Below are positions 435 through 62,673 of a stretch of DNA of 64,000 bases, one piece after another. The translations under genes and the position numbers were made by a program. Within the stretch, counting starts at the first letter, position 1, and each line of letters starts with the position of its first letter. This DNA comes from Zychaea mexicana (lineage: Eukaryota > Mucoromycota > Mucoromycetes > Mucorales > Lichtheimiaceae): assembly GCF_025766255.1 (NCBI RefSeq), contig NW_026516778.1, positions 1 to 64,000 of the forward strand, in the 5' to 3' direction. The notes beneath the pieces are model-generated. The model worked only from the letters and a program-made list of their open reading frames with translations, ran no database searches and was not told the DNA's origin.

Positions 435-1167
435 AAAGTGGTGGGTGGCTATATAAAGTGGTGAGTGGCCATAGAAAAGTGGTGAGTGGCCATACTAAGT
501 GGTGAGTGGCCGTACAAAGTGGTGAGCGGCTATAGAAAAGTGGTGAGTGGCCATTCTAAGTGGTGAGTGGCCGTACAAAGTGGTGAGTGGCTATATAAAG
601 TGGTGAGTGGCCATAGAAAAGTGGTGAGTGGCCATACTAAGTGGTGAGTGGCTATAGAAGAGTGGTGAGTGGCCATAGAAAAGTGGTGAGTGGCTATATA
701 AAGTGGTGAGTGGCCATAGAAAAGTGGTGAGTGGCCGTACTAAGTGGTGAGTGGCCGTACAAAGTGGTGAGTGGCTATATAAAGTGGTGAGTGGCCATAG
801 AAAAGTGGTGAGTGGCCATGCTAAGTGGTGAGTGGCCGTACAAAGTGGTGAGTGGCCATAGAAAAGTGGTGAGTGGCCATACTAAGTGGTGAGTGGCCAT
901 ACAAGTGGTGAGTGGCTATATCGAGTGGTGAGTGGCCATAGTAAAGTGGTGAGTGGCTATAGAAAAGTGGTGAGTGGCCGTACAAAGTGGTGAGTGGCCA
1001 TAGAAGAGTGGTGAGTGGCCATAGAAGAGTGGCGAGTGGCCATACTAAATGGTCAGTGGCCATATAAAGTGGTGAGTGGCCGTACAAAGTGGTGGGTGGC
1101 GATATAGAGTGGTGAGTGGCCATACAAAGTGATGGGTGGCTATATAGAGTGGTGAGTGGCTAAACAA
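435..1167. repeat. Minisatellite, about 40 copies of an 18-19 bp unit
   Basis: A continuous head-to-tail array of the unit AAAGTGGTGAGTGGCCATA and close variants. Units differ mainly at the CCATAG / CTATAT / CCGTAC segment, so several subtypes alternate in an irregular order. The core GTGGTGAGTGGC is almost invariant. Every unit therefore carries a GTGAGT hexamer, which matches a 5' splice donor on the plus strand. The open reading frames that cross the array simply reflect its periodicity and are not genes. Confidence 0.95.
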
Positions 1168-1289
1168 GTAATATGATTTTTGATCTTGGCTTCTTTCCGT
1201 GTTCTTTATCTATTTTATTTGCACTAATGAATATTTTGGTCAAAACATAATAGTACGGCGCCCACACTACGTACATCACCGCCACCATA

Positions 1290-21200: not shown

Positions 21201-21420
21201 ATATGTTCGATGGTACAGCATCCACAGTGACAACGATGGTCGCCGATTTACGGATCCTTATCTTGAAACGTGGTGTAGCCGTTTTCGAAGTGAAGCGATG
21301 GACTGCATTGTACCTGTTCATCGTTTATATGGACAAGTTGCCGTAGTAAAACTGGGTGCACAAAGAAATGCAAATGCCAGAACAGTAGTGCTTCTGTTAG
21401 CAAAAAAGATGCTAGTATAA
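18229..21420 (+). pseudogene. Nearly complete Tnp2-like DDE transposase with one internal stop
   Basis: The N-terminus starts at ATG 18,229 with a CFCPLCSR zinc-type motif and MVPRRTHEYH. Short exons follow: acidic, 18,464-18,574 and about 18,642-18,813. The main exon begins about 19,065 (GDIQPNFSI). It has a second Cys cluster (CCSRCHSLYLASDPHCPRTC), the VDWFGPF block, GVMPGPREASISDINHYLRP, ACDIPAARKTSGF with a CACHKC zinc pair, IDPMHNLFLGT and HMHLAATIDDFGPLYAYWLF leading into FSFERYNGYLKEI. The likely catalytic acids are in DIPA, DPMHNL and FERYNG. A TAA at 20,767-20,769 interrupts the frame, which then continues in phase to 21,420 with a conserved C-terminal domain (TMMGQTYRSAEARSRRGAHA, VFAYVRWY). 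Apart from that stop it looks intact and younger than the 12.3-kb relative. Confidence 0.85.
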
Positions 21421-33061: not shown

Positions 33062-33687
33062 AAGTCTCTATATTTATTTTATTTTATAAATCTTTATATT
33101 TTCATATTAATCATTATAACCGAATTAATTCATTTTGTCCGAAAAATAAATTTAAACTCAATTACTTTAATATTTAAAAAAAACAAAAATTGAATTTAAT
33201 TTATATATATGTGTAATTCCTCAAATATACATTACATTATTTTATATTTTTTATTTTTGGCATTTGTCTAAGGTTATTAAGTTTCCCTAATTGCTTTATA
33301 AAGTTAAAAGACTGAACCAAAAAAATGAATTACACATCAATAAATATAGAAGATGAACTACAACAAGAAGTTTATAAATTAATTAAAAATAAATGAAAAT
33401 TTCTTAATACTGAGTAGCCATATATATATAACAAATATAATCATAGAACAGAAATAAAAGATACTGAAAACAATTCAATTAAATTTATAAAAGATACATT
33501 ATTAAATCAACTTGGTTATTTACCAGTATTCTATTTTTTAGTAATTTTATATAGAAATAAAGAGTATCTAGGTCCTTATCGTGAAGTAGATAAAGGATTA
33601 CTTTTATTATATTATATTGTTTTAGGATATACAGGTAAAGATATGCATCAATTTATACCATATGGCTTATATAAACAATTTTAGATA

Positions 33688-36587
33688 TGGTGCACGCCAC
33701 CTTAAACCGTACTACTTTAGTGGGTAACTTTAAAGTACTGTGAAACCATCTCACTACCCCATATCAAAATTTTAAACTGATAAAAATGTTCCTTTTGACT
33801 AGGAGAACAAAGTTATCAGTTTGGATTTTTCATTTTTCTAATAAAGTTTTGAGTTACCGTCGCTCAAAGTCGGAACAAGTTTATAAGTGATGGGGGAAAA
33901 TTGACAGTAGTTCGAATCCAGCTTAAACCAATCAGGAGCTTTCGTTTGCTCGGCAAATATATATGCCGAATTTGTACTACATGAGATCTTCACCGATTAT
34001 CGACTATACTGTTACATATTGCTGCGTATAGAAATTTCGTCAGTAGATTGTAGTCTTATGCACCTCTTTCTTTTACAAAGAATCTAATATTCATTATGGG
34101 AAGCGTCAACAGACGAAGTCGCCTTGTCAAAAACAACTAGCAACGTGTGCAAAGTGGCCCATTCGGCAAAAAACTACCTGAACCTACAGATAGCTCACGT
34201 GCTAGCTATAGCAGCGATGATTCTTCCGATGATTCTTGTAAATACGACGATACTTATGGGTTGGAACATGAAAGGGATGATACTGTACTGGAACGTTCAG
34301 GAACTCGTTTGCTTGAATGGTTTCAAGGTGCCGACAATAAGCTAAGAAGCTCGTATACTGGTATATATTCTTTATAATTATGATAGCAGCACAATGAAAC
34401 ACATACAAATGGTCTATTGCATCCTGAGAAAAATATTGACAATGTTGGGTGAATGTAGGCAAATCAGAAAGTACCTATTATCGACGAAAATGGGATGCTA
34501 AGGAACTCGCTGCCCATGTAGAAAAAATGAGACGGCTCACTGATATGGGATTTACTAAGATTCAAGATCCTGTGGAAACGAGCAACAGCAGCAGTGATGA
34601 TGAAGATGCCGACGTTGAAATCGATGAAGAGCTGGAGGTGTTAAAGATCGTGCGGCCTGCTTTGATCCAATTACGCAAGGATATCAAAAATAAGAAAACC
34701 GAAATGAGCATGATGTCAACTATTGAGGCCAACAAATACCTTAGCATCGAAAAATATGCCAAGCTCCGGATCGACGATAACATGCGTATTATGGAGGCAA
34801 CACGATTGGTTGCAGATGCCATTTGGGAGAAACACACTAAACATTTGCTGACAAGAATCCGTTGGTGGACCAAAGAGTATCTTGAAACCGGTAAGATTTG
34901 CGTTAATCGCCAAGGTGCTCATATTAAGTCTGCGTCACTTTTGGCTGATGAAAATGTCAAGGAGGCTGCTTGCACTTGGATCCGTAGTCGAAAGCCAGCA
35001 GAAAGGAGTATCCCAGAGCTCAAGGTGGAACTAGAAACGAATATATTTCCGAAAGTATCCAATATCAGCAACGCAACAGTATCTGAGCGCACCATCACAC
35101 GATATATGGCTCACTGGGGACCTGAGTATAGAGAAAGTGGAAAAGTCATAAGTAGATGGAAAATATCAACTATATATTAGCACATTAGATAGATGGCTAA
35201 ACGTACTCCTTTTATAATTGTCGACAGATCTATTTTGATGGTCACGAAAGAGATGATGTAAAGGAGTACTATGTTCGCTGGGCCAGGGCAATGATGGGAT
35301 ACTGCAAGAAGATGAAAACGTACACTGAAGATGGCGAGTTGGTCGAGCCAGTGTTAGAGGACGAAAACGACGTTGAGCTGGTGATGGTGACACACGACGA
35401 ATGCATATTTTATGCAAACGATGACAAGAAAACCAATTGGCTTGCACAAGGCGAAACTCCCTTAAAGAAGAAAGGACCAGGAGCATCATTGATGGTAAGC
35501 GATTTCTTGTGCTCATGTCATGGCCAGCTCATGCTATCAGAAGAGCTTCTTAGTCTCCCTGAGCATGCAGACATTCCATATGAAGCACGAGAAATCATTT
35601 TACCTGGTGCAAACCGTGAAGGCTATTGGAAAAGTGAAGATATGGTCAAACAATGAAAGGAAAAAGCAATTCCTATATTCCAGGCAATGCATCCTAATTG
35701 TAAAGGTATGTCTTTCTAATCATTATATCATATATACTGCATATTATTTAATACAGCGTAATTAATCTCTTACCTGAACAGCTGTCTTTTGCTTTGACTA
35801 GAGTTCCAACCACAATGCCTACAGGGAGAACGCCTTATGGGCCCAAAAGTTCAATCTTAATCTAAAAAAAATCAGTCAAAAGCAATACTTTCGCGAACCA
35901 TCAACTCATATCCGGGATAGGTGGTTTTTTGATGAAAAGAATGAAATGATGTTTCAATTCATGTACAGAAGAATTGATGGCAAAATTCATCTGCGAGGCA
36001 TGCGTGAAGTTAGTATTTTTGTACCATTAGTCACGAGACATAGCACTCACTGTTGTTTCATTCTTTTGTAGATTTTAGAAGAAAGAGGCCTTTGGAAACA
36101 AGGGATGCAGAAAAAGGAAGCAACAGAGGTTTTAAGTGCCCAGCTTGACTTCACCTCAGAGAAAAGTGCTATAGCATATGCTGTTCAAGGCGCTGGTCAC
36201 GTTTTTCAGCTTTACCCAAAGTTTCATTGTGAGTGCAATTTCATTGAACGCTATTGGGGTGCTGTTAAGCGAGAAGTGCGTAAGCGATGCAACTACACTT
36301 TTGCAAGCCTCAAGAAAACTGTCCCCGAAGTTCTCGATAGTATTCTGCTGCCAATGATCCGTAATTTCGAGTGTAGAGCATAGAGATACATTAAGGCATA
36401 CCATGATGGTTTAGAAGGTCGTGATGCTATTGATGCTGTAAAAATCTACACATCTCACAGAAGAGTTCGAAAGAACATGTAAATATATCTATCCATTTCA
36501 TATGCGGCATTTGAAAATAGCGGGGATTTAAATTAAAAAATTGACAGTAATTTTTGCTGGAGGAATGGTTTAAGGTGGCATGCACCA
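33688..36587 (+). mobile_element. Mariner-like element with TGGTGCA TIRs, nested in copy a
   Basis: The TIRs begin TGGTGCACGCCACCTTAAAC on the left and are matched on the right (21 bp with one mismatch). TA flanks both ends (33,686-33,687 and 36,588-36,589). It contains a multi-exon DDE transposase on the plus strand. Length is 2,900 bp. Confidence 0.9.
34096..36480 (+). pseudogene. IS630/Tc1/mariner-superfamily DDE transposase ('HCE.NFIE' type)
   Basis: Exons, with short GT..AG introns between: 34,096-34,362 (acidic Ser-rich leader, one TAG); about 34,455-35,150 (STYYRRKWDAKELAAHVEKM, a long helical DNA-binding region, ERTITRYMAHWG); 35,229-35,706; about 35,780-36,009; about 36,072-36,480. 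Catalytic positions are VMVTHDECIFYA, then KGPGASLMVSDFL, VFCFD*SSNHNAY with a TAG just after the second Asp, and KFHCECNFIERYWGAVKRE carrying the Glu. Internal stops: TAG near 34,138; TGA at VKQ*KEK; TAG at FD*SS, where Gln is usual; TAG at CRA*RYI, where Trp is likely. The fold and motif order fit a large fungal group of mariner-like transposases. This copy is inactive. Confidence 0.85.
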
Positions 36588-37613
36588 TATCAAATTATTC
36601 TGATTTAAATAAAATTGTAAAAAATTACTTAAATAGTATGTTTTCAAATATTAAAATTAGGATACTTGCTGCAAAGAAAAATAATCCTAGTGGTTTAAAA
36701 AATGTAACTTTATTTCTTGATGGTCATAATAGTAAAATTTAATATTGTAATCCAACAGAATCAAAACGTACATTATATTCTTATAAATTAAAAGGTACAG
36801 GAATACGTACACAGATAATATCTGATATGAATAATATGATAACATATATATCTGACAGTGAAAAATGTGCTATTGGGAATGATGGTACTATGTTTCTTAA
36901 TATGAAACTATATAAAAATAAAATTTATGAATACGATTGTATTGGTTTTGATAGTGGTTATGACCTATTCATAGAAAAATTTCTTAATAATGCAGATGAA
37001 TATAATAGTGATAATAAATTTAATACACGAAATTTTGTATATCCTATAAGAAAAGAACAAAATGTTTTAAGAAAAGTAACTGAATTAGATTATAATAAAA
37101 AATTTGGTTCATTTAGGTCATCAATTGAAAATCATTTTTCTGTTTTAGCATCTAAATTTGATAGATTTAATAACAGTAAATCTACTGTTCAAACATCTGA
37201 TATTAAATATTATAATATTCAATTTAGGGTTTCTTGTATTATAAAAAATATATGGAAAATGGTACAAGATTATAATATAGAAACACAACCTCACCATATG
37301 TTATGGTATAATAATAATTTTGAATTTCCTACTAAAGAAACTAAACTAAATTATATATTTAAAAATGAGCAATCTATTAATAAAGATTATAATAAAATGT
37401 TAGAAATGCAAGAACAAGTTTTAAATTTAAATTTAAATGATATAGAAATGATAGAAGATATAAATGAAATATTTCAAGAAATAAAGTAATTGAATCAGTA
37501 AAAAGAAGGAAAAGAAATTATAGAAAAGAAAATAAAAATAATGATTCATATGAAGTTGAAAAGATTTTAGATCATATGATAGATAGTGATAATAAATTGA
37601 TATTTTAACAATA

Positions 37614-40199: not shown

Positions 40200-41584
40200 A
40201 CCAACAACGTGCATCCACAAGGAGAATCACACAACACAGTCATCGTCTGTACCACAGCTCCGTCGAACAAACGACGTTCCAGTGACTCATCCCTGCGTAT
40301 CCACGTGTCAAGAAATCCCGCAATCAAGCGACCTAACACACGTACAGCAACACCACCAATGAGCAACATCCGCTCAGTGCAAGCCAGCGGTCGAAAAGGA
40401 CGATCACGCTCGCGTTCACATCGATTCCATCACCGTCGCCACCAGCAAATGCGCTAGCCGAAGTTCTCGGTCGTGTATCCGAACTCGAGAAACGAGCAAC
40501 GGGTCATGAAAAAGAGTTATTCCAAGCAAAAGAAGAACTACAACACATGCGTGACCTCATCAACGAGAACCAACAACTGCGCTCTGACCTCGCGGTTGCA
40601 CAGGCTCGTATAATTGAGCTTGAGAATAGCCAAGCCGGTGTACCACCCACGGATCGACCAACGAACCCAATGGATATAGACGGCATTGCCCGACATGAAG
40701 AGATCCTCACGACCACCAGCGACTCAGTACATGCTATACCTGCAGACTAATGGGAAAAAGGCCGAGCTGCACGAGAGGCAACGAAGGCACAGCAGCAACA
40801 CCATCGTGAGGAACGTTTACAACGACAACTAGCTGCTCTCGACAAACAGCAGCAACGAAAGCATAAGCTAACTCGACAGCAATCATCAGTACAACAGCAG
40901 ACAACACCGACCTCGTATGCAACAATCGCGCGTAGAAACGCCGCCACGAAGAAGAATGCAGTTGCGGGGCCACCAACAGAGACGCAGAAGAAGTGGGCTC
41001 ATCATATCTTTGAAGAGGCATCTGACAACACGGCATACACGGTTATTTACATGCCCTCACCACGCCGTACTCTCCATAGCGAAATCCGTCGCGCTTTACG
41101 CCTACTTGGAGCTGCACAAGAGAGACTTATAGACATTCACTTCCCTGCCCACGGCGTCGTGGGCCTGCTGATTCACTCCTCGTATGAGCGAGAGTTGCGC
41201 GAGCTACTCACACAGGCGAAACTTACACCAAAGGACAATTTCAATCCGATCGCGGCATCGACGATCGGTGATCCAACATTACTCCGTGATATGACCGAAA
41301 CGGAACGTGAAAAAGAAGCCAAAACACTGTATCAGGAACGGATGCTTACCATGTGCATACAGATGCCGAAGAAACATCTGGCCGTCGCAATCATGCGGCA
41401 TTTCACATCACTACCAGAAGATCATGATCACCGTATAGGATTGGAATATTTGGCAAAATTCCAAGAAACACACCCTAAGCCTACCCGCCAACGTCGCCAG
41501 CCCCTAGTGACAGAGGCTGAAGCCCGCCATCTGCTAGGTGGTAGCGACAACGATGACGAAGAGCCGGAACTCATGCAAGAATAA
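40200..41584 (+). pseudogene. LINE ORF1 protein
   Basis: The main frame runs from about 40,380 to 41,584 and is interrupted by one TAA at 40,748-40,750 (HAIPAD*WEKGRAARE). A basic Ser/Arg N-terminal region in another frame (40,176-40,457) suggests a frameshift near 40,440. A coiled coil follows (EVLGRVSELEKRATGHEKEL, DLAVAQARIIELEN), then a Gln-rich helix (RLQRQLAALDKQQQRKHK) and a globular C-terminal domain (YTVIYMPSPRRTLHSEIRR, VGLLIHSSYERELRELL). The layout fits a trimeric nucleic-acid-binding ORF1 protein. The terminal TAA overlaps the ORF2 ATG in the string TAATG. Confidence 0.8.
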
Positions 41585-43281
41585 TGATAAACTGCATCAA
41601 AATTGGCCAATTTAACGCCACTGGTGTCAACCATCAGGCACCAGATGAAATCATTGATTCTTGTAATCAAGAAAACATAGACATAATTCTTCTCACTGAA
41701 ACATATCTTACCTGCAGGCGGCTCCTTACTGACTGGCATCAGTACCACACCTACGCCACCCCGAACAAAACAACTAATAGAGGACGAGCCCTGGGTGGTA
41801 TTTCATTGCTTGTACGACCAGATCTCAACGTCCATATTCACCACTACCCTATGAATAATCTACACATTTTATCATTCCGGGTTGGTACATACTCCTTCCA
41901 CGGCCTATATCTACCACCTTCTCTCAATATCGACACCTGCGCACAGCTGCTGGATCAGCTAAACATCGACGATCATACCATCATCATCGGTGACCTCAAC
42001 GCACGTTCACCAACGATAACCGGCGACCATTCGGACAACAAAAGAGGACGAGACATACTAGAGCCCTGGCTATTTGCAAACAGGCTACACGTATGGAACG
42101 GATCACTCGCAAGAGGGCAGCCTACATATCGCGTCGCCAATGGCAGTAGTATCATTGACCTATTTATATCATGCGTTGGGGCCCTAGAAGAACCAGAAAT
42201 TCAGATATTTGACAGCATCGCAATCAACAACTCTAAGCACCATGTATGCATGCTGTCCTTTACACCGACTACACCCTGGCTTCCACTACCAGCTCCGAAC
42301 TCTCCACGCTACCATTGGAAACTGCAACGCCTCACGGATCCAGATGTTCATAAACTCTACGTTAATCAATTCAATTGCAACATTGCCAGTCCAGTGAAGT
42401 CTCTCAACCACATAGTCGTCAACAGCACCAAAGCCATACCAGACAAACCAACAATTGAACAGCTAGGGAAAGATGTAGTTGCAGCAATCCACAACGCATT
42501 GGACACGAGCGTTACCCGCAGCAAACCGCGATCAACACAACGGAAATGGTTTTGGAACAGCGAGCTGCAAGATAAAGCCGATTATCGAGATATAGCGTAT
42601 AAGCAATGGCGACGAGCCCCCAACAACATTGTAATACGAGCTCGGCTCTGGTGTAAATATATATCCTGTTGTGAAGTTTTTACTCGCGAAGTACACCTAG
42701 CAAAAAGACGCAGCTGGAACCAGTTCTGCATCGAATTGGCTACTGCACCAGTAAACGAGGCTAATACCATGATCAAACGGATGCGACGCAACCGGCAACC
42801 GAGTCATACCTTCTCTCATCCAGAAGGCCCTCAACAAGCAGTAGAAACCATGGTAACTCATCTGAGCAAAACGTTTAGTGGTGAACGGGCCCAAGGATGC
42901 GGTAATACATACTTTGGCATAAAAAACTATGTCGTTGATGAAGACCCGTTCCCAGCACCAGCAATCGGAACCGTTTTACGCAAACTGGCACCGCGCAAGG
43001 CACCTAGAGACGATCACATCAATGGCGCCATGCTTAAGCCGATCGCTACTACATTGGCACAGGTATTAAGCAAATTGTTTAGACTATGCTGGGACTGGTC
43101 ATGGGTCCCCATCTCCTGGCGCACCGCACAAGTCGTGCCCATACACAAGAAAGGTGATGCCGCAGAAGCTAGCAACTACCGGCCAATTAGTTTGACTAGT
43201 GTACTCTGCAAAGTCCTTAAGCGCTGCCTACTTCCCAAACTAATGGAGTCAAATACAACGACTGTGAGACAAACACAGTGA
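41584..43281 (+). CDS. LINE ORF2, endonuclease and N-terminal reverse transcriptase (truncated)
   Basis: 565 open codons. Residues 1-215 form an APE-type endonuclease: KIGQFNATGVN, ILLTETYLT (catalytic Glu), HGLYLPPS, IIIGDLNARSP (Asp/Asn pair), SIIDLFIS and a final SKHHVCMLS. The last motif normally reads SDH, so SKHH lacks the Asp. A linker with a YKQWRRAPNN-type helix leads to the reverse transcriptase fingers, KLAPRKAPRDDHINGAMLKP, SWRTAQVVPIHKKGD and NYRPISLTSVLCKVLKRCL. The frame then ends at TVRQTQ and a stop in foreign AT-rich sequence. The catalytic palm (FADD/YADD) is absent. The frame itself is uninterrupted, suggesting a fairly recent loss. Confidence 0.88.
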   Translation: MINCIKIGQFNATGVNHQAPDEIIDSCNQENIDIILLTETYLTCRRLLTDWHQYHTYATPNKTTNRGRALGGISLLVRPDLNVHIHHYPMNNLHILSFRVGTYSFHGLYLPPSLNIDTCAQLLDQLNIDDHTIIIGDLNARSPTITGDHSDNKRGRDILEPWLFANRLHVWNGSLARGQPTYRVANGSSIIDLFISCVGALEEPEIQIFDSIAINNSKHHVCMLSFTPTTPWLPLPAPNSPRYHWKLQRLTDPDVHKLYVNQFNCNIASPVKSLNHIVVNSTKAIPDKPTIEQLGKDVVAAIHNALDTSVTRSKPRSTQRKWFWNSELQDKADYRDIAYKQWRRAPNNIVIRARLWCKYISCCEVFTREVHLAKRRSWNQFCIELATAPVNEANTMIKRMRRNRQPSHTFSHPEGPQQAVETMVTHLSKTFSGERAQGCGNTYFGIKNYVVDEDPFPAPAIGTVLRKLAPRKAPRDDHINGAMLKPIATTLAQVLSKLFRLCWDWSWVPISWRTAQVVPIHKKGDAAEASNYRPISLTSVLCKVLKRCLLPKLMESNTTTVRQTQ

Positions 43282-49500: not shown

Positions 49501-50123
49501 TGAGAAGCAGCTTCTCTATCGACACTGATGACGCGAATAAAAGAATAGATTTTTATTTGTTTCACATGAGGCACGCACCTGAGATAGCAGTAAGGTCGAT
49601 GCCAGTGTTTTCATGGCAACGATGAGCAAGCTTATGTATTCTGGCCACTTTATCTCCTAGTTACGATATCTAACGCGTTGCTTGGAGCGTCATCCACCAT
49701 CATTGGCTCCAAAAAGAAAGGTCAAATGGTTGATAAGCCGGAAAAGGAAATTCATCCAGATATATAAAAAGAGCCTATTTTTTACTTTCCCCTCCTTTTC
49801 CTTCTTCTTTACCTGCTTTCTATCCCGTACTTTTCTACGATGACTTCTCTAAGCAACAGCTACAACCACATCACCGGCTATTACGACTTTGACGACGACG
49901 CCACCACTGCCCCTTGGCGTCCTACTATTAGTTGTCTAACCAATTATAATCTACTAGCTGTAATATAGATAATAAAATTGCTATGATCGGTATAACCATC
50001 AGTGGCCGAATTAATTATTGATTTACAATAAAAATAATAAAAATTGAATTTTTTTATTTATATTGGTAGCCTCCTATGAGAAAAAAAAGAGCGATTGTTT
50101 AAAGTACATAACAACAAATAAAA

Positions 50124-51607
50124 ATGAACGCAACACAACACACTGAACAACTCGATATTGAAATTAAAAATTTTATTGATAATAAATGGACTTTTCTTGA
50201 TAAATCTTGGCCTGAAATGCAACATAGATTTTATCATAGAACAGCTATTAAAGATATGAAGAATAATACAATAAATGATATAAAGGATGTATTACTTAAT
50301 AGATTTGGATTTATACCTGTATTTTATTTTCTTACAGTTTTATATGGAAATATTGAATATCCAGGGCCATACCGCGAGATTGAAAAAGGACTTGCATTAT
50401 TATATCATATGGTATCAGGTGTATCAGGAAAGGATATGCATACTGTTATGCCATATGCAACATTTTATGATTTATATAAGCGGTTCTGGATTACTAACTA
50501 TAATGAATTGAATAAAAAGGTAAAACAAGATCTAGATAGTATGTTCTCATCACCACGTATTCGCATTCTATCAGCAATAATAAATAATCTAGATGGTTTT
50601 AAGAATGTTACACTATTTATTGATGGACATGATAGTAAAATAAAGTATTATAAACCAAATGAGTCACATTCACAATTATATGAATATAAATTAAAAGGGC
50701 CAGCTGTACGTACACAAGTTATACAGGATATGAATGAAATAATTACACATGTTTCAGTATCTGAAAAATGTGCTATCGGGAATGATGGTACTATGTTTAT
50801 TAATATGAAACTATATAAAAAGATAAGTGAGGCAGATTGTTTAGGAATGGATGGTGGATATAACTTATTTATACAAAAGTTTAAAGATAATGCGACAGAT
50901 GCTGATATAGTTTTTATGATCGTAATTATTTACATCCCATAAGAAAAGAACCAGGACAAAAGTTAACAATGATTGAGACATACTTTAATAACAAGTTTGG
51001 ATCATTTCGTTCAGCAATAGAAGCACAGTTTTCTATGTTAGGCTCTAAATTTGAACGATTTAATAATAATCGTGCAGCATTGCAAATAACCGATATAAGA
51101 TATTATAATATTCAGTTTCGTGTTGCTTGTATTCTTACTAATATATGGCGATTTGTAAATAAGTATAATATAGAGGTACAACCACATCATAAATTATGGT
51201 ATGGAAAAGAATTTGAATTCCCAAGTAAGAAAAACAAACTTGGCTTAGTATTTTCAAATGAGCAAAAAGTAAATACTGAATATAACGAAATGGTTGACAT
51301 GCAGCAGAAATTTCCACAGCTTAACATTAATCAATCAATAGATATGGCTATAGATAGTGAGGACGAAACTGAAAATAATACATCTAAACGCAAGAGAAAA
51401 AATCAAAGAGAACAGAGAAATATAGAACATAGTAATTCATATGAAATTGAGAAGATTATAGGACATGTGTATACTGATAATAAGTACATATTTGAGGTTA
51501 AGTGGGTTGGATATAGTGTAAAGGATAATAGTTGGTTAACAGTTGATAAGTTCAATTCCCAGGAAATGCTACATGAATATATGGCCACACATGGTATTCA
51601 GCTCTAA
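50124..51607 (+). pseudogene. DDE transposase with C-terminal chromodomain, copy b (one frameshift)
   Basis: About 495 codons with a single frame change near 50,915, which is otherwise open. Residues 1-110 are helical (FLDKSWPEMQHRFYHRT, FGFIPVFYFLTVLYGN, GPYREIEKGLALLYHMV). The RNase-H-like core has FIDGHDSKI (Asp ~167, with a second Asp at 170), GNDGTMFINMKLYKK, LGMDGGYNLFIQKF (Asp ~243) and FGSFRSAIEAQFSMLGSKFE with the probable catalytic Glu. A basic linker (SKRKRKNQREQRN) leads to a chromodomain over the last ~55 residues (SYEIEKIIGHVYTDNKYIFE, VKWVGYSVKDNSWLTVDKF). The core resembles the DDE_Tnp_4/PIF-like group loosely; I do not recognise the exact family. The chromodomain suggests targeting to modified histones. 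Confidence 0.8.
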
Positions 51608-52237
51608 ATTAATTTCTTACTTATTTGCTTATTAGAAAATTTCATATTGAAACTGACCGCATCAACTTTTCGTTTACTTGCCCAATTATATTTATGTTTT
51701 ATGCATTCATTAGTTATACTTGTACTTATCTTAGTATCTGTTGATTTATTTTTGACGTCAGTTTCTTTTGTTATATATATATCATCTATTATAGCCTGTT
51801 TTATATCCTTATGCTTTTTAAAATATTCTTTTGGCTATATTTCTTCTACTATTTGCTTGTTTCTCCGTTTATTTTTAATGTGTCTTTTTTTCTTTTTACG
51901 TTTTGGTATATTAATTGGTATGTTGCAGTCACTGCTTTTCTCTGATTCAGATGTACTTACATCTATGTATTTATGTTTCTCTATATCTTCTGGTGGGTTC
52001 CCAATCAGTAGTATCATTTACAACATCATCACATTTTATATCATTAAACACATCTTCCCAATGCCTACAATTTGCTGATGGTGGTACCTTTACAGTTGAC
52101 CATCCTCTATTATTTTGTTGAGGCGGTTTATGTTGTTTATTGTTCTGTGTATTATTACTATTATGTTTTTCTTCTAGTTCCTTCATATATTCTTCTGTAT
52201 CAGCTAATTCTTGTAGTTCCTCTACTGTTTTATCCAT
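51604..52237 (-). pseudogene. Third ORF of the composite element, acidic/basic protein of unknown function
   Basis: The frame starts at ATG 52,237 just downstream of the Rep stop. It shifts once near 52,000, has one TAG at about 51,837, and ends at a stop whose bases overlap the transposase stop (51,604-51,607). The N-terminus is acidic and helical (DKTVEELQELADTEEYMKEL), then Asn/Gln-rich, then RGWSTVKVPPSANCRHWEDV. The second half has a strong nuclear-localisation-type cluster (PKRKKKKRHIKNKRRNK) and ends with a charged tail. It is not recognisably a capsid protein. Its tight packing between Rep and transposase suggests that it belongs to the element. Confidence 0.6.
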
Positions 52238-52302
52238 CGGTGTATATTTTTAATATCATCCTGACCACTATTATGTGTATAACGGATAAATGTATGCTGA
52301 TC

Positions 52303-53715
52303 TTAGTATTCGTTTTCGAATTCACCTTTGTATAAGTCCTCATACAGATCCATGTTTTCATAATACATGAATTTATTTTCATAATCCTTCACCTTCATTG
52401 TGTATGGATTCCATATTATATGACCTTTACGGTTCTTATCAACATAAATAATATATAAACGATTGAGCGTTGGCTCTAACTCATATACTGATTTATTTTG
52501 GTATAAGATGTGCGGCATATAGTTACTATTCAGTATTATTGGCATATTTTTCTTTTTAGTTATTGACTTTGTGAATTTGTCATTAAGTTTTAACTGTGTT
52601 CCTTCTAGCATTTGGTTTAAAAATGTTAATTTGAAATCAGAACCTGTTTCTTCATTATACATAAAATCATAATCATCATCCTTATAATCTGACTAATCAT
52701 TTTCTTTATTCATGAGATATGCTCGATGGCCACCTTGTTCTAATACATCAATGTTATATGTCTTACCTACATTTGATGGACCTACAATCCAGTATTGTGG
52801 TATCTTATTTTTACCACGAAACATTGTTTCAATACCAAACATAGACCACATATGTAATTTATTTCCAGGGTTATTTTCCATATCGGCATTATGAAAGTAA
52901 GAATTTAAATTTGATTTTACAGTATCATATTTCCATAGCATTTCTGGATATATTTCGGTAGCCTTCCACATATTAAGCTGCTTAGTAATTAATTGATATC
53001 CAAGTAACTGTTGGTGCATTTTTCTGGTTCTAATTTCATAATTTGGATCCATATTATAACAAATATAACCTTTTCCTTTCATACAATAGCTAATAGACTT
53101 TTGTGGATTACCACCTGGTTTAATATTTGGAGTAACACCATCAATAGTAAAGAATTTACGTGCTGTTTTTGTGTCAAACCGCTCATCCATTTGTATCCAT
53201 ATGTGTACATGTTTCTCATTGGTTTCTGGTGCAATTTCATCACATGCAATTGCCTTTTCAATTCGATAACCAATACGTTCATGTTTTATAAACCATTCCA
53301 TGATTTGTTCTTTTGTTAAATAAAAGTCCTTACAAATATATGTGAACAGCCCTTTAGTGTTTTGGAATCGGAATTCTTTACCGCCCTGCGAGGAATCTGC
53401 ACCAGAGGTGTTACCCTCTAACATTGCATCGGAAAATTGAGGATTTGAGGATTTGAGGAATCTCACATATGCCCTAATTCTACCAATTATCTTTGAACGG
53501 CTTTGGTCCTTTGTTTTTTTGTCAATTTTTGTATTTTTCAAGTCTTTTTCTAGGTCATCCTTTAGTTGGTCAACGATAATGTTAACATCATTAATATGTT
53601 GGTGATGTTCAGCAAGATATTTAGCTCTTTTAACCAGGAGCGTCAAGGTTACTCCTAAAATAGGAACGAATTCAGCCATTATAGCAAGAAATGTTAGTAA
53701 GTTAATCTGATCCAT
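52303..53715 (-). pseudogene. CRESS-DNA-virus-type Rep (HUH endonuclease + SF3 helicase), one internal TAG
   Basis: 470 codons in a single frame, interrupted only by a TAG at about 52,693-52,695. The N-terminal ~115 residues are an extension that begins with a hydrophobic helix (LLTFLAIMAEFVPILGVTL), unusual for a Rep. Rolling-circle motif I is LFTYICKDF (from ~123), motif II is KHVHIWIQ with the metal-binding His pair (169 and 171), and motif III is ISYCMKGK with the nucleophile Tyr ~210 and Lys ~213. The SF3 helicase follows: Walker A GPSNVGKT (312-319), an acidic Walker-B-like stretch just after the TAG, and a motif-C-like ILNSNYMP. Reps nick origin DNA and drive rolling-circle replication. 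The break before Walker B should destroy helicase activity. Confidence 0.85.
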
Positions 53716-54525
53716 GTTGTATTGAATGTTGTGAAAGTGTTGTATATATAACAGATAAATTTCACTTGGTATTTTGAGGTGTTATTTTATATAATAAATA
53801 AAAATTCAATTTTTATTTATTTTAAAAATTTAAATGTATGCATGCCAAGACATACGTACATGAATTATTTCAATAAAAATTAATTTGGCTATCCTGATAT
53901 ATCTTAGCTAATAAACCAGTTAGGGTTACTAGATTGCATTAAAATCATCATAACTATGGCCAGTCCCCCTTACGACCCTGATGCAGCTTCTCAACTGTCT
54001 TACCACTCACACTCGACCTTCAACACCATCAACTCGCCTCTGCACATCTCGCCCGTCCTATCCACCAACAGCAACCTCAACAACCCCACCACCACTTCCT
54101 ACCGCTCCTTTGAGCCCATCTTCTCGACTGAGTCCTCTCTCATCATTGACCTCGGTCATGATGATGATGCGTTCGGTGCTCTGTCGCGTGCGGGTTCGTC
54201 CCCACCGCCATCACCCCGGCCAAACCCTTTCCTGTCGCCCGTTCCTCTGTCGCCGATTCCACCATAGCATCACCACTCACCGCAACAGCAACATCAATCA
54301 CCACTGCCACAACACCAAGCTGCCCCCACCACTCCTCTTTTCGCCCCAGCACCTCTCTTTCCACCCCTCGGTGTCCCTAGCAATGAAGAAGAAGAAGACG
54401 ACGATGATTCCATAGATACTGATGAGCTAATAGACATCGACGAGTGGTGCGAAGAAGAAGATTCCAACGAGATGTATGTTGACTGGGTAGGGCCAGCGCC
54501 AGTGTTCCGCTGGTGGTGCCAGTGA

Positions 54526-55262: not shown

Positions 55263-55921
55263 ATAGTAAGAAAAATATTATAATTTTGTATACTATTTAT
55301 AATTTATACAAATTTTATTAATTAATATTATTTATTTTATTATTCAACAATAAATTTTAAAACAAATAAAACAAATAATTCCTAGGATACAATTATTATA
55401 TATATTTATTTATAATGAACCAAGATTATTCTCATGTAAATATTTAGAAAGTAAAGATTTTTGATTGAATTTATCAATTGTTAGCCAACTATTATCACTT
55501 TCAGGATAATCTTTCCATTTTACATTAAATTTTATAATGTTATTATCTATTTTATGTCCTTGAATTGATTCTACTTCATAAGTATTATATGTTTTAGTAG
55601 CTTTTTTTCCTATTTTTCGTTTTTTTCCTTGATCATTTTTTTTATGGTTTATATTTGAATCAAGTTCATTAGCTTCTTCTTCATCTGCTGAATAATCATC
55701 AATAATCATTTCATTATTTTGCTCAATATTTAAATTAAGGACATCATTTTGTAATTCAATCATTTCATTTCATTTTTTTTTATTTTCTACCTCATTACTA
55801 ACTACTATATCAATCAATTTTCTTTCAATAGGAAATTCAAAATTATCACTTGCCCATAGTTTATGATGTGGATATATAGGTATATTAAATAATTCAACAA
55901 AATGATGTATATTTTTTAATA

Positions 55922-57613
55922 TGGTGCATACTGTCTTAAACCAGGAATAAATTCGATCACTGACATGAAAAAAAAGGAATCCTATCAGGGCTGTCTGAAA
56001 TGAAGTTATCGATATTCTGCGACGTAGAACATGTTTATAAAGGTATTCTTAACACATTGTACGTTTTTGTTTTTTGATTAAAGCATATCTCATCACTCTG
56101 ATAGCCTTTGAAGTTTTGTCGGGATATGAAAAGTTACTAAATAGGTAGAGGATTTCGACAGTTGTTTAGGGAAGGAGAAGAAATTTTTTTTGGCAGTGGG
56201 TAACCATAGATGTCCCAAGGTTACACACATATAGCTGGCTTATCCAGTAATATGAGTGCGTTACTGCTCTTCTTACTCATCCATTTTCCCAATAACATGC
56301 CTGTAGTGAACCACATTAATACACTGCTTAAGATATCAACAATAAGATATTCAGTTAAACATTATACTATACAAGAAAACCTCTCACTCAGATGATTTAC
56401 CTTACATGAGCAGGACAATGAACCTATCAACAGGTACCTCGGCCATTACAGCAGCCAGCTAATGCCGGTTTCAAAGATGTGCCCGATTAACATAGCGACT
56501 TCAAGAGAAGTTCTGATACATCCTTGATCCATCCTCTATCACATAGTTTATCCACTAAATGGATAAATTAATATCGCCGTCTTAATAGCTAGAATATAAA
56601 AAAGCTTTGAATAAAACATCATCTCAAAGATACTTGATCTTGTTCCTTATTATTTAAGCTCTAGCATTACAACGCCTAACAATGGCTCCTAGATCCAACA
56701 AACAAAAACGCGCCTTAGAACAGCTTCAAAGCTCAAAAAACGGACGATTTCAAAAAGTTGCAAGACTAGAAGAATCGCCAATTGTTGAGAACCAGACTTC
56801 ATCTGATATGAGTGAACAAGAATCAAACGTCTTTGAGATTCTCACTGCGCTCGAAGAAGCAACAGAAACCACAACGACAACGACGACAGCCACCACAACA
56901 AGCCAAAAGTTTCCTATTATTTGGGACAATAAAGCAGATGCGAAGTCCCGTGGCAAATATTGGGGACACGGCAGAACCACTAAATACTACCAGCTAGAGA
57001 AAGCATCAGAAAAGAAGAAAGGGAATTATGAAATCACTTCCTTCTTTCATAAGGATGATGAAGTAGAGGTTGTGTTGGAGGACTTTGTGCCAGTGCTGAC
57101 TGTTGAAGAAGCATTTTTGAAACTTACCCCAATTATCCAACCTGAAATGAACTCAAAAAAGGACAAGGAGCGAAACATGAGCGACTATGAGCTACGATTG
57201 AAAGGTATTGCGGTGCAGGGAAATGAAGTGCGAAAAAGGAGTGTGATTACTCGTTTACAGCTCTTGAAAAAAGGCTCGAGGATTACTTGGATCAGGTATC
57301 TCCACCTGATGAACCACCTACAGAAATTCGCTGTTACTACAACCGTTCCTGGCGCTATATTCATGCATATAATGAAATGAAAACTGGAAGCGAAGCTCTT
57401 AAGCTATTTGAAAAGTTTACGACACGCAGATATCGCTCTTATAGAAGAAGCGGAACAGAAGATTAAATCTACACGTTGCTATCAATATGCAAAGAAATGT
57501 CTACTATTGGATTGACTGACAATGCCTACACATGTAGCGGCTATTCTATTATCCAGAGGCACTTTAAAAAATCTCAATTTTCGACAATTCATGGTTCAAG
57601 ACAGTATGCACCA
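55922..57613 (+). mobile_element. Internally deleted mariner-like element with TGGTGCA TIRs, nested in copy c
   Basis: The TIRs begin TGGTGCATACTGTCTTAAAC on the left and are matched on the right (about 20 of 23), flanked by TA at 55,920-55,921 and 57,614-57,615. At 1,692 bp it is a shorter relative of the 2.9-kb element at 33,688 and lacks the catalytic core. Confidence 0.88.
56682..57466 (+). pseudogene. Transposase remnant with N- and C-terminal regions fused, DDE core deleted
   Basis: ATG at 56,682 opens a basic leader (APRSNKQKRALEQL), a Glu/Thr-rich stretch and RGKYWGHGRTTKYYQLEKAS, which matches STYYRRKWDAKEL in the 33.7-kb transposase. Helical sequence follows to about 57,260, then a frame change. 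The next frame reads RLEDYLDQVSPPDEPPTEIR, then YYNRSWRYIHAYNEMKTGSE and TTRRYRSYRR, matching the extreme C-terminus of the full-length relative (RYIKAYHDGLEGRDA). Everything between, including all catalytic acids, is gone. It could at most bind DNA. Confidence 0.75.
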
Positions 57614-58785
57614 TAAACAAGCAACTTTAAACTGTAAATTATAATGTTCTGTTTTGTTATTTTTGTAATTGTTTTACTATTATTAAATCTTTCAAATTTA
57701 CTACCAATAGTTGAAAATTGTGTTTCGATTATAGATCTAAAACTACCAAATGTTTTATTAAAATGATCTTCAGTAATAGTTAAATTATCATTAATATTTT
57801 TTCTAATTGGGTATACAAAATTATTATTATTAAAGTTAAATCCTTTTTTATTAGCATCTTCTATAAATTGATTAATAAATAATGTATATCCACCATCAAT
57901 TGCTACTATATCACTTGGAGTTATTTTTCTATATAATTTCATTTCTAAAAACATAGAACCGTCATTACAATCTACACAAAATCTACTTTTGGATACATTA
58001 ATTATAATATTATTAATATCAGATACAATTAATGTTCGTAATCCACTTTTCTTTAATTTATATGAATATAATCTATTATGATATATCTCTATATCTGTAT
58101 AATTTATACGAGAATCATGACCATCTAATACTAAAGTAATATGTTTAAATAAATCTGGATTATTTTTTCTTGCTGATAATATTCTTAATTTGATATTTGA
58201 ACATATAGTTTTTAAAGCATTATCTACAATTTTTTCAACTCTTTCATAATTTTTATCATCTGCCCAAAATTTTTTATAAAAGATATGAAATGTACTTTGT
58301 GGTAAGTATTTATCTATTTCTTCTTTTCCACATATATTACTAACTAAATGAAATAATAAAAATAAACCTTTTTCAATTTCAAAATAAGGACCAGGATATT
58401 CCTTATTAGTATATAATATTATTAAAAAATAAAATACAGAAATATATCCTAATTTATCTATTAGTATTTTTTTAATTTTATTAATAAATTTAATATGTTT
58501 TAATTCAGTTCTATGTTTATATTTGTAGTGAATTATTGGCCAATTTTCATTTAAAAAAGACCAATGATTAATAATAATATTGTTTACTTCAAGATTAATC
58601 GATTCTGTTATGTCAGTCATGTTTGTAGTTGTGAAAATATATATACCAGTCTTTTAACTTAAATAAGCAATCAGGGATAATAATTATGTTTATATTTTGA
58701 GCACAACTCAATATAATAAATAAAAATTCAATTTTTATGTATTTTAAATGTAAATTGTTTTCTATTAATAAAAAAAATTCTACTA

Positions 58786-59352: not shown

Positions 59353-62300
59353 TTAAGTGCGTCTGCGTTTGACGTTACGTTCAGAACGACGTAGTGGTGC
59401 AGTCTGTTTGCGTTTGCTTTGCGTTTGGCGAGGCTGAGGTGGCTGTGCCTGTTTTGCCTGCTTTGCTTGGTTGTGAGTGTTACGAAGCCGAGGAGGCAAT
59501 CGCTTACCCTGATTTGAATTGCTATCGTCTCGACGTTGCCAATATTTTTCAATCAGCGTCAAGTCATTGAAATGCTCGATGGGTTCCCAGGTATCGTCTT
59601 CAGGCCCATATCCTTTCCAACGAACAAGATACTTATAATTGCCAGGAGAACCTTAGTGATCCACAATAGACTGAACTTCAAAGAAATCTTCACCAGAAGC
59701 GATGGTGTCCTGAGAAATCAGTTTGATATAATGAGGAGGAACATCACGACCCAGAAGGGCGCCTGTAGAGTCTGTAAGAACGTATTGACCATTCCCTTTG
59801 TTTTTGCCATGGACAGTGTAAGGGCCTTCATAACGAGCATCGGTCTTGGATCGACGATTCATGCTGACGACCATAACCTTACTGCCGATAGGGAATTCCT
59901 TCAAAATACGGAACTTCTTTGCGAATTTCCCTTCTTGTGCTTGGTGTAGAGCTTTGATCCGGTCACGAAGAGCAGGAATGACAACCTCAGCCATCTGTTC
60001 CTCTCTTTTGTCAGTGTAACGAATCTGATCCTCAATGCCTTCCTGTATCAAATTGCTGTAGTCTTGCCAGAGATTAGGTTGACGAGCGAACATGACCGAA
60101 AACGGACGGGAACGATGCAAGGCAGCATGCTTGTTATTGATAGCAAGTTGTGCACTTGGAAGGAACAGATCCCAATCATCCTTTTTTCTGTGTAAACGTT
60201 TAACGATCACGCTCTTCGTCGTATGAACCCATTTTTCTGCGCAGCCATTTGCTCTAGGATTGTATTGCGTAATGAGGCGTCTGTCTACGGCACAGTTTTC
60301 CAATAGATGACGAACGACTTCATTGCTGAATTCAGAACCACGATCCATTTGTAGGATTTTTGGGTAACCAAAGTCTCCAAAGATTTGAACGAGATTCATA
60401 GCAATGGTAAGTGCGGTCTTGTCAGGAAGAGCACGTAAAATAACGTAGCGAGAAAATAAATCAACCATGACCAAAATATAGTTGTTACCACGAGGTGTAG
60501 TGCAGTTTAAATCGCCTAGGTCAATAGCCTAGTGATCGCCAGGTTTATCTGCAGCGATGCTACGAAGTGGGTGATAACTGTGTTTGCCAATATTGAAACG
60601 TTGACAGTCTGGACAATTAGCAACGGTGTTTAAAGCGTCTTTCTTTATAGTTGACCAGTGTAGGCCTTGGCTATGCATTTCATTGATGATTGAATCAGTA
60701 CCGAAATGGCCATTGAGATGCGCTTGTACTAGGAGATTAGCACGTTCATTCTCGGGTGGTGTCATGTATTCGACGAGTGTTGCAGCACGTTGAGGGAGGG
60801 ATTGAGAAGAAGAAAAGCCGTTTTTGTTTTGGTGTGACTTTTTGAGTTCACCCAAATATGGTGAAGGAGCGATTCTTTTTCCTGTAGTATCATCCCCCGC
60901 CAGCTTCTTTGGCATAAAAAGACGGCTGAGCGTGTCTGGTAAGATGTTTTGCATACCAGGTAGATGAACCACTTCAAAGTCATAGTCAAAGATAGTGTCA
61001 TACCAGGTAACCATCATCGGATTTGCTACAACTTGTGTGTGCAGATAAGTTAAAGCTTTATGATCAGTAAAGAGTGTGAATCTGTTACCCCATAGATACT
61101 TGTGGAATTTGCGAAAACTGAAGACAACTGCTAAAAGTTCACGCTTTGTGACACTATATGACGTTTCAGCTTTGTTTAAAGCACGTGCCATGAAACCAAT
61201 GTATTGATATCGGTTGTTTTTGATTTGGTAAAGACAGCAACCAATACCAGTGTCAGAAGCATCCGTTGCCACATAATAAGGCAAAGATTCATCAGGTTGG
61301 CTTAAGACAGGAGCAGATTCCAAAGCAGCTTTGATATTGTTAAAAGCGATGGTGTGTTCTTCTGTCCAGTGCCCGGATAAATCCTTTATGTTGCGGAGCT
61401 TGTCAAGGGGAGCTGTGAGCATAGCCACCTTGGGAATGGATTGTCGGAAGAAGTTCACTAATCCAAGAAATTGTTGTATGTTATGGCCAGTTTGAGGTAA
61501 ATTCCAGTCATGGACGTTAGTAACTTTGCGTTTATCCAGAGAAATACCACCAGCATGAAGACAGTAACCAAGGAGGTAGACTGACTTTTGAGCCCAGGAG
61601 CATTTGTCACTGTTGAGCACGAGATTGACCTTGGAGAGACGACTAATAGCGTCTTGTACGTGATGTACGTGTTCTTCCATAGTGTCAGAGAAGACAATGA
61701 TGTCATCAATATAAGAATCCACGTGCTTCACACCATTAAAGATGATATGAACACATTTCATAAATAAACTGCTCAAAAAACGGATACCAAACGGACATCC
61801 CACAAAGGAATATTGTCGATCGTTAAAGGTAAATGAGAGTTTTGCTTGATCTTCTTCGTGTACTTTGAAGCGTGTGAAAGCGGATTTCAAATCAAGACAA
61901 GTGAAGACAGTCGCGTTTTTCATCCGTCTTGCAATATCGGAGCAAAGAGGGATTGGATAGGACTCTTCAGTTGTACATGAGGCGTTCAGTGCCCTAGTAT
62001 CAATACAAGGTCGATAGGATGTAGGCAATCCTGTTTTCGGATCCTTTTTGGGTGCAAATGTCATAGGATTGTTCCATGCATTACCAGGAGGAGCGTGTTT
62101 GATAATACCATCGGCTAACCATTGATCTATCTGTGTTTGAAGAATAGGAATCAATTTGTCCACTAAAGGATATTGACGCCGATTTACAACTTTTCCTTCA
62201 GGTGTGTGAATACGAACAACAGATTCGGGAAGAGTGCAAAAAGCAGAAGGAGGAATGTTTATATTTTCCTGTATGTAAGGTTGAATAGATTCAAGAAATT

Positions 62301-62673
62301 GTTTGTGTTGCTCTGGTGTACCAGCAGGAGAAGAATTGTTTGGTTCAGGTAAATCTTCTGGTTCAGGCAAGCTAGGACGAGAAGAGCGGTGCCAGCAAGA
62401 GGCGAGCCCTTTCAAGTAAATACCAATAAGAGGCATGAGATCTGAGCCAATAGATACTTCGGCATCAGCATTGAATTCAAAGACTTCAAAAGAATGTGAG
62501 GCAGTGATTCCGTTGTGTAAAATCTTTATTTCGTTTGTATGACCAATTCTACTAATGCTCGGGCCAGGAGCAGCCAAGTTGACCTTTCCTTTCATGGGAG
62601 TGACAGACAGACCCAGAAACGACCACAGCGAAGGAGTGATTGCCGAAAATGTGGCACCCAGATCAACAAACGC
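59353..62673 (-). pseudogene. Chromovirus pol (protease-RT-RNase H-integrase-chromodomain), two stops
   Basis: In frame with gag. Protease: AFVDLGATFSAI, where the expected D-(S/T)-G has Leu. RT: SYRPCIDTRALN, TCLDLKSAFTRF, SFVGCPFGIRFLSSLF (usual PFGL.NAP altered) and SYIDDIIVF with the catalytic Asp pair. RNase H: VATDASDTGIGCCLYQ and FTDHKALTYL. Integrase: HHCC zinc motif (LNGHFGTDSI, CPDC), then VMVDLFSRYV, QMDRGSEFSNEV and PRANGCAEKWVH for the D,D,E triad. A TAG lies at GDH*AIDLG near 60,530, where Trp is usual, and a TAA at VDH*GSPG near 59,652. The chromodomain ([20 protein letters not shown]) and a basic tail end at 59,353. Otherwise it is intact, so inactivation is recent. Confidence 0.9.

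What the first reader, a model, noticed from the sequence alone, without database searches (positions are those of the whole stretch)
49916..53965. One insertion unit carrying both a DDE-chromodomain transposase and a CRESS-virus-type Rep
Seen: a single 4,050-bp unit splits one recognisable gene, with CCCCTT on both sides. Inside are a DDE transposase ending in a chromodomain and a Rep with HUH motifs (LFTYICKDF, HVH, YCMK) and an SF3 Walker A. A third ORF ends within 1-3 bp of the transposase stop. Known: DDE transposons move by cut-and-paste and normally do not encode rolling-circle initiators; Rep/HUH transposons (Helitrons, replitrons) do not normally encode DDE enzymes. Inferred: the element may combine DDE integration with Rep-driven replication of an episomal circle, perhaps a virus-transposon hybrid. 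I do not know of a described family with this gene set. The alternative is a CRESS sequence that inserted into, or was captured by, a transposase-only element such as copy c.
Basis: partly seen in the sequence, partly recalled or inferred. Interest (0 to 1): 0.95.

Follow-up and report, generated by a model that had tools for sequence, protein, structure and literature searches.

The report
Transposon carrying a viral replication gene
A family of jumping genes in what is likely a Mucorales fungus carries, in one mobile unit with many copies, both a cut-and-paste transposase gene and a virus-type replication gene, and the replication protein is predicted to copy circular forms of the element that the transposase would then insert.

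Summary
The unit spans 49916-53968 (4,053 bp), splits a host gene and is flanked by a 3-bp duplication (CTT). Twenty-four near-full-length copies, window included, turned up in this 50-Mb genome. It has two convergent genes whose stops overlap: a DDE_Tnp_4 (Harbinger-type) transposase ending in a chromodomain, and a CRESS-type Rep (HUH plus SF3) of about 703 aa. Rep's HUH and helicase parts are under purifying selection. Three Rep-only elements are internal deletions of the two-gene unit that keep the transposase tail, so the union is old. Left (transposase) and right (Rep) halves recombine. Seven head-to-tail junctions carry nearly the same 15-bp AT-rich spacer, as expected if circular forms exist. 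I infer, unproven, that Rep replicates circles which the DDE transposase integrates. Against: none of 38 loci has both genes intact, no standard CRESS origin was found, and reshuffling of one old dimer could explain the junctions. Rep relatives occur in Circinella minor, Rhizopus stolonifer and metagenomes; linkage to a transposase there is unproven. My ten literature searches found no description of this pairing.

The parts
49913..49915 (.). left copy of the 3-bp target-site duplication (CTT)
49916..53968 (+). the whole unit, 4,053 bp
   Evidence: ends from comparison with the 24 other loci that show both ends (first looks)
49916..49922 (+). left terminus GGCGTCC (imperfect 7-bp terminal inverted repeat, GGNGNCC)
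50124..50942 (+). transposase, N-terminal part with the first two catalytic Asp (broken frame)
50969..51607 (+). transposase, C-terminal part with the catalytic Glu and the chromodomain
51440..51580 (+). chromodomain (PF00385, E=1.5e-7)
   Evidence: residues 158-204 of the ORF at 50969
51604..52692 (-). C-terminal half of the Rep frame (rest of SF3, charged tail), broken by stops and shifts in this copy; its stop overlaps the transposase stop by 2 bp
52693..53715 (-). Rep ORF, 340 aa: N-terminal helical domain, HUH endonuclease, start of SF3 with Walker A
53041..53385 (-). HUH endonuclease domain, approximate limits (LFTY, HVH, YCMK)
53962..53968 (+). right terminus AGTCCCC (GGTCCCC in most of the copies with both ends)
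53969..53971 (.). right copy of the target-site duplication (CTT)
49840..49915 (+). 5' part of the host gene split by the unit
53972..54267 (+). 3' part of the split host gene
33304..37605 (+). copy a: related transposase without Rep, interrupted by another element
55437..58755 (-). copy c: related transposase without Rep, interrupted by another element

Best explanation
This is a family of Harbinger-like DNA transposons, likely of a Mucorales fungus, in which the gene facing the transposase encodes a CRESS-virus-type Rep, and the Rep likely copies a circular form of the element that the DDE transposase would then insert. Shown: the two genes share one mobile unit with constant ends and, at 11 of 20 independent sites, 3-bp duplications; the HUH and SF3 parts of Rep are under purifying selection; left and right halves recombine; head-to-tail junctions with nearly the same 15-bp spacer exist at seven places. 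Inferred: the spacer is the joint of a circular form; Rep nicks and replicates that circle; the transposase cuts the element out of the circle (or out of the chromosome) without the spacer and pastes it in; a circle that recombines with a resident copy leaves a tandem with the spacer. Rep sits where two of four Rep-less cousins examined have a small accessory gene, so it may also have taken over that protein's job.
For: Copies and ends: 24 near-full-length places of 61 matches listed; fixed-rule 3-bp TSD at 11 of 20 independent left sites, P=2e-15 against 1/64; the rule was read off the same copies, so this P is too small, but the match stays far above chance even if five offsets had been tried. 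Five loci with an already counted left flank were dropped. Linkage: 34 of 55 transposase places at 70% identity or more have a convergent Rep within 4 kb, against 1 of 28 below 70%, and that one (C291) is a 93% identical copy full of stops whose low score is an artefact. Near-full frames exist: Rep 688-703 aa in 4 of 38 loci, transposase 463-494 aa in 6 of 38, plus a Rep-only copy with 693 aa. Selection: pooled dN/dS 0.17 (HUH) and 0.16 (SF3) among copies other than Rep-only, 0.09 and 0.08 between those and Rep-only ones; shifted-frame controls, run on the whole Rep frame, 0.80-1.09. Age: Rep-only elements keep element nt 1479-1692, the transposase tail, and differ from the rest at dS about 0.5. 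Fold: Vientovirus FB Rep, geminivirus, WDV and circovirus Reps. Circle-like joints: seven right-end/15-bp spacer/left-end junctions; the tandem in L043 has one TSD (TGA) outside the whole pair; two tandems share the left flank of a single copy elsewhere, L012 with L010 and L050 with L049, as if formed after insertion; the five right ends at junctions do not form one group in a tree shown without support values.
Against: No circle was seen, only chromosomal junctions. No locus of 38 has both frames full length. No stem-loop with a CRESS nonanucleotide (NANTATTAC, recalled) was found; TACTATTAG, 8 bp from the left end, is one base off and varies among copies. Transposase dN/dS (0.50) equals its shifted-frame controls (0.47, 0.52), so no selection on it is visible among these copies, except perhaps in the 32 most distant pairs (0.31 against 0.57 and 0.86). 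The closest Rep pairs show none either (0.57 against 0.61 and 0.57), and Rep's N- and C-terminal parts are less constrained (0.26-0.42). Transposase and Rep distances are uncorrelated over 34 loci (Mantel r=0.05, 234 of 999 shuffles), so the pair is not inherited as one block. Nine of 20 sites lack the fixed-rule TSD. The outer 3-bp flanks of the C303 tandem do not match. In the tree of right ends L047 sits with L010 and L050 with L049, their own duplicates, and L057 with L058, so independent origins are fewer than seven. L056 has a spacer-like left flank without a right end before it. Transposase-Rep linkage in another species was not seen.
Confidence: 0.45

Rival explanations
1. Rep serves as the second protein of a Harbinger-type transposon: it binds or unwinds the ends, or helps repair and re-replicate the excision site, in place of the small accessory protein of Rep-less cousins. 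No episomal circle is involved, and the tandems come from ordinary recombination.
For: Two of four Rep-less cousins examined (L052, L053; not L054, L055) have a convergent ORF of 173-176 aa in the same place; Rep and the accessory frame of the Rep-less derivative in L043 share the linker and the C-terminal tail; known Harbinger relatives carry a second DNA-binding protein and sometimes cargo genes (passages of PMC12730594).
Against: The most conserved parts are the nickase and the SF3 motor, which an end-binding role would not need; the near-constant 15-bp spacer is not explained.
Confidence: 0.3
2. The head-to-tail junctions come from one ancestral tandem dimer that was copied and reshuffled by recombination among copies; they say nothing about circles.
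For: Only seven junctions were found, against 98 left ends with up to two mismatches; C51 and C194 share an outer flank; four of five junction right ends sit beside their own duplicates or each other; copies are highly mosaic.
Against: Partners differ (two-gene to satellite, satellite to two-gene, two-gene to two-gene or chimera, Rep-only to two-gene), and the junction right ends do not form one group.
Confidence: 0.35
3. Rep is a captured selfish gene that rides on a transposon and is kept for its own sake, for instance because it lets Rep-only derivatives amplify when helped in trans.
For: Rep-only elements with both ends exist at C68, C140 and C174; C68 has a fixed-rule TSD and C140 a 693-aa open Rep.
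Against: Only three Rep-only elements with both ends were fetched, against 34 linked places, and they derive from the composite.
Confidence: 0.15
4. Chance nesting or an assembly chimera: a CRESS-derived sequence inserted into one transposon.
For: None beyond the oddity of the pair.
Against: Same order and ends in two dozen places on many contigs, and the same overlap of stops at the 11 places where both alignments reach the shared end.
Confidence: 0.01

Closest known systems
PIF/Harbinger (PHIS) DNA transposons
   Same: DDE_Tnp_4 transposase, 3-bp target duplication, a second gene in the element; cargo genes (TET/JBP, SET) are known in relatives (PMC12730594, passages seen)
   Different: only a 7-bp imperfect terminal repeat; no Myb/SANT protein found; a viral-type Rep as the second gene; chromodomain on the transposase
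CRESS-DNA virus Reps (Redondoviridae: Vientovirus; Geminiviridae; Circoviridae)
   Same: HUH fold with LFTY, HVH and YxxK motifs, SF3 helicase with Walker A; nearest solved structures 9pqf/9pqq, 7vg8, 1l2m
   Different: long N-terminal helical domain and charged C-terminal tail (703 aa against 326 aa of 9pqq); no capsid gene recognised; no standard origin seen; lies in a chromosomal transposon
Helitrons and replitrons (recalled, no call)
   Same: eukaryotic mobile elements with an HUH enzyme
   Different: they do not encode a DDE transposase; Helitrons make no target duplication and use a different helicase (recalled)
TET+ Harbinger and other fungal transposons with cargo enzymes (PMC12730594, passages seen)
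   Same: a DDE transposon that has taken on an extra enzyme gene
   Different: there the cargo is a TET/JBP dioxygenase acting on methylcytosine; here it is a replication initiator that could act on the element itself

Membership tests
PIF/Harbinger (PHIS) | DDE_Tnp_4 type transposase with D-D-E | tested here: met
   PF13359 E=1.8e-9 on P0002; D167, D243, E300 assigned by motif
PIF/Harbinger (PHIS) | 3-bp target-site duplication | tested here: met
   11 of 20 independent left sites, rule read off the same copies
PIF/Harbinger (PHIS) | terminal inverted repeats | tested here: inconclusive
   GGCGTCC against GGGGACC, 5 of 7 bases
PIF/Harbinger (PHIS) | second protein with Myb/SANT domain | tested here: not met
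   no such Pfam hit on Rep, on accessory ORF pieces of L043 and L018, or on the small gene of cousins L052 and L053
PIF/Harbinger (PHIS) | place in the transposase tree | not tested
   no reference set of PHIS transposases was built
CRESS-DNA virus Rep | HUH endonuclease motifs and fold | tested here: met
CRESS-DNA virus Rep | SF3 helicase | tested here: met
   Walker A and downstream motifs invariant over the 11 aligned sequences; model of the homolog P0003 aligns to whole Vientovirus Rep; no Pfam helicase family was hit
CRESS-DNA virus | capsid gene | tested here: not met
   no third gene recognised: ORFs on the unit, including three plus-strand ORFs opposite Rep, have no Pfam match to a capsid family
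CRESS-DNA virus | origin stem-loop with nonanucleotide | tested here: inconclusive
   no clear stem-loop; near-match TACTATTAG at the left end
CRESS-DNA virus | circular ssDNA form | not testable with these tools
   needs reads or wet DNA
Helitron | no target duplication, single HUH-helicase gene as the transposase (recalled) | tested here: not met
   3-bp duplications and a DDE gene

The most novel reading that the evidence does not exclude
A new kind of mobile element: a chromosomal DDE transposon that also lives as a Rep-replicated circle. The circle carries a 15-bp AT-rich joint that insertion discards. It has satellite partners (1.2-kb XY elements, Rep-only and transposase-only forms) that share its ends, join it in head-to-tail multimers and swap right halves with it, like a multipartite replicon that integrates by cut-and-paste.
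Probability: 0.3. Interest if true: 0.95.

Novelty: new variant of a known kind. Interest (0 to 1): 0.82.

Why it matters
Cut-and-paste transposons do not by themselves raise copy number, and CRESS replicons do not by themselves integrate. An element that joins the two enzymes would solve both problems, would show a path between transposons and small DNA viruses that can be followed in living fungi, and makes a direct test possible: look for the circle joint.

Tried and rejected
Viral contigs (IMG/VR) were scanned with P0001, with the Rep alignment and with P0002: no relative. GTDB prokaryote contigs with the Rep alignment: none. A CRESS origin: none convincing. C291 as an ancient co-diverged pair: rejected, it is 93% identical DNA. 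Homology of the small accessory protein of cousins with Rep: none found by BLAST. Co-inheritance of the two genes as one block: not borne out by the Mantel test, and identity to L009 falls in four copies from 96-100% in the left part to 77-92% beyond element nt 1800-2100. Outer flanks of the tandem at C303: no match; C194 and C51 could not be judged because the left end of the first copy is unclear. One search was a first look at the ends, read by hand; one search ran with a faulty left-end pattern (3 independent sites, none with a TSD) and was replaced; one search printed its divergence table and then stopped with an error. Literature: ten searches (one search returned no paper); beyond the listings I saw passages only of PMC8647823, PMC9603141, PMC6668415, PMC12730594 and PMC8780604; none of what I saw describes the pair. 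The library holds open papers only.
Full report
What is there. The unit at 49916-53968 is 4,053 bp long, lies inside a host gene and carries CTT on both sides. Taking it out with one CTT leaves an open frame that matches a paralogous gene about 20 kb away in the same window. The transposase frame is broken by a shift in this copy and the Rep frame by several stops, so the window copy cannot make either full protein. The genome holds many others: of 61 DNA matches listed, 24 including the window cover at least 3,800 of the 4,050 query bases in one piece, at 89-95% identity apart from the window itself. The tool scored only 38 of 395 candidates, so this is a lower bound; C291 is one more.

Ends and insertion. 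Comparing the copies puts the ends at GGCGTCC on the left and GTCC plus two bases, mostly GGTCCCC, on the right. With that rule the three bases on either side agree at 11 of 20 loci with independent left flanks (chance 1/64 each; P=2e-15). The rule was read off the same copies, so the P value overstates the case, but even with five offsets free the expected number would be under two. Forty-one sequences were examined: 16 did not show both ends, and five with an already counted left flank (L012, L014, L019, L024, L050) were dropped before the count. Two of the nine misses (L022, L049) have a match at another offset. Nine misses are many; copies with swapped halves would give such misses, but I did not show this case by case.

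Two genes. Open versions exist elsewhere. The transposase is 494 aa in L023, L030 and L043, and P0002 from L023 scores DDE_Tnp_4 and Chromo above Pfam's cut-offs. Rep is 703 aa in L027 and L028. The two frames face each other; in the window the two stop codons overlap by 2 bp, and the same spacing is seen at the 11 places where both alignments reach the shared end. No locus of 38 has both frames full length. Rep has LFTY, HVH and YCMK motifs; a Walker A and later SF3 motifs are invariant over the 11 aligned sequences, while the HUH histidines are not wholly so (P0004 has HYY). By sequence profile its nearest solved relatives are Vientovirus FB Rep and geminivirus Rep. By predicted fold the window Rep matches the HUH domains of Vientovirus, TYLCV, WDV and circoviruses (mean pLDDT 60.5, mostly 70-87 in the HUH part). 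The model of the metagenome homolog P0003 aligns with the whole Vientovirus Rep (mean pLDDT 56.4). No other ORF of the unit that I scanned has a convincing Pfam match.

One family or two things side by side. I merged the matches (66 of 69 and 88 of 92 rows typed in) into 59 Rep and 83 transposase places. Of 55 transposase places at 70% identity or more, 34 have a convergent Rep within 4 kb; of 28 more distant ones, 1 does, and that one is C291, which is in fact 93% identical at the DNA level. The 70% line was drawn in the gap seen in the list, and both lists are capped (63 of 161 and 87 of 825 candidates scored). Twenty-four Rep places have no transposase match within 4 kb; several of those fetched are truncated or interrupted copies. 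Three fetched Rep-only elements (C68, C140, C174) have both ends and lack roughly nt 172-1478 of the unit; they keep the transposase tail, so they arose from the two-gene form. Rep-less forms with a 96% identical transposase also exist (L043 copy B, L056).

Selection. Over the Rep frame, pooled dN/dS is 0.25 among copies other than Rep-only (703 pairs) and 0.19 between those and Rep-only copies (114 pairs); in the HUH part 0.17 and 0.09, in SF3 0.16 and 0.08, in the N-terminal part 0.34 and 0.26, in the C-terminal part 0.42 and 0.41; the whole frame read in shifted frames gives 0.80-1.09. Counted by distance, the closest pairs show no signal (0.57 against 0.61 and 0.57) and the most distant the strongest (0.15 against 1.0 and 1.32). 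This is what a gene under selection in active lineages and free decay after insertion would give. For the transposase the frame gives 0.50 and the shifted frames 0.47 and 0.52; only the 32 most distant pairs hint at constraint (0.31 against 0.57 and 0.86). Long open frames in some cousins at 46-62% identity speak for older constraint.

Mosaic copies. Over 20 full copies, divergence is 2-4% over the transposase and rises to 11-14% near the start of Rep. Copies L030, L031, L033 and L035 are 97-99% identical to four others in the transposase but only 85-91% in Rep. The Mantel correlation of the two distance tables is 0.05 over 34 loci. Left and right halves therefore exchange.

Head-to-tail junctions. 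At seven places a right end is followed by 15 bp (TGA, TGT or TGG, then ATTTTTAAAATT or a close variant) and then a left end. The search listed ten matches; the other three were not examined further. The partners are of several kinds: two-gene units, Rep-only units, and a 1.2-kb satellite family here called XY, which has the same kind of ends and encodes a small protein with a Rep-like linker. The tandem in L043 has one 3-bp duplication outside the pair. Two tandems, L012 and L050, have the same left flank as single copies elsewhere, L010 and L049. Among the 25 loci with both ends, only L012 and L050 run on into the spacer after the right end scored there; L056 has a spacer-like left flank without a right end before it. 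The reading I prefer is that a circular form has this spacer as its joint, that the transposase discards it, and that homologous recombination of a circle with a resident copy leaves it in a tandem. The rival is one old dimer reshuffled by recombination. C51 and C194 share an outer flank and sit together in the tree of right ends, so the seven are not seven independent events; at C303 the outer flanks do not match.

Relatives. The protein database gives ten Rep relatives with P0001 and six more with the alignment: Rhizopus stolonifer, Circinella minor (five pieces, up to 84% identical) and metagenomes. It gives 93 transposase relatives, the nearest in Circinella minor at 78%. Both genes thus occur in Circinella minor, but the listed contig lengths differ, so linkage there is open. 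Of four Rep-less cousins fetched from this genome, L052 and L053 share about 2.3 kb with a transposase and, in the place of Rep, a 173-176-aa gene on the other strand with a Cys/His-rich stretch; L054 and L055 show no such gene there. Rep thus stands where a second transposon protein would be expected.

Mechanism and status. I hold the two-gene transposon as shown, and Rep-driven replication of a circular form followed by DDE insertion as the most likely use of it, at 0.45. In what it works like, it lies between a Harbinger transposon and a CRESS replicon. In membership, it meets the DDE and TSD features of Harbinger but not the Myb/SANT one, and the Rep features of CRESS viruses but not the capsid one. 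It should be filed as a Harbinger-like transposon with a CRESS-type Rep, not as a virus. My ten literature searches found no such pairing; that is limited to the open papers held and to what the listings and five papers' passages showed.

Noticed in passing
L018 (reverse strand, about 80-1264) and L057-L061, L063: XY: a 1.18-kb satellite family with the same kind of ends as the unit, encoding on the reverse strand a small protein (broken in L018) that shares a linker with Rep; it stands head-to-tail with two-gene units.
   Followed up: partly
L052 297-827 (+), L053 2365-2886 (-): Two Rep-less cousins carry a convergent small gene (173-176 aa) with a Cys/His-rich stretch at the place of Rep; no convincing Pfam match; possibly a zinc-binding accessory protein.
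   Followed up: partly
L051 (C291): Full-length copy full of stops; half of its private changes are C>T or G>A (58 of 116), with 16 of 32 C>T at CpA and 17 of 26 G>A at TpG, a RIP-like pattern that I did not expect in this group (recalled).
   Followed up: partly
L010 and L012 (C79): Two copies about 12 kb apart in opposite orientation share the same left flank; one is a single insertion with TSD TGT, the other runs on into the spacer and an XY element.
   Followed up: partly
window 18991-21321, 34449-36500, 41584-43281, 59653-63990: Long frames that look, by eye only, like other transposable elements: a large transposase, a mariner-type element inside copy a, a LINE-type endonuclease/RT, and a gypsy-type polyprotein (ORFs).
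   Followed up: no
window 431-1169: Tandem repeat array, seen in the self-comparison of the window.
   Followed up: no
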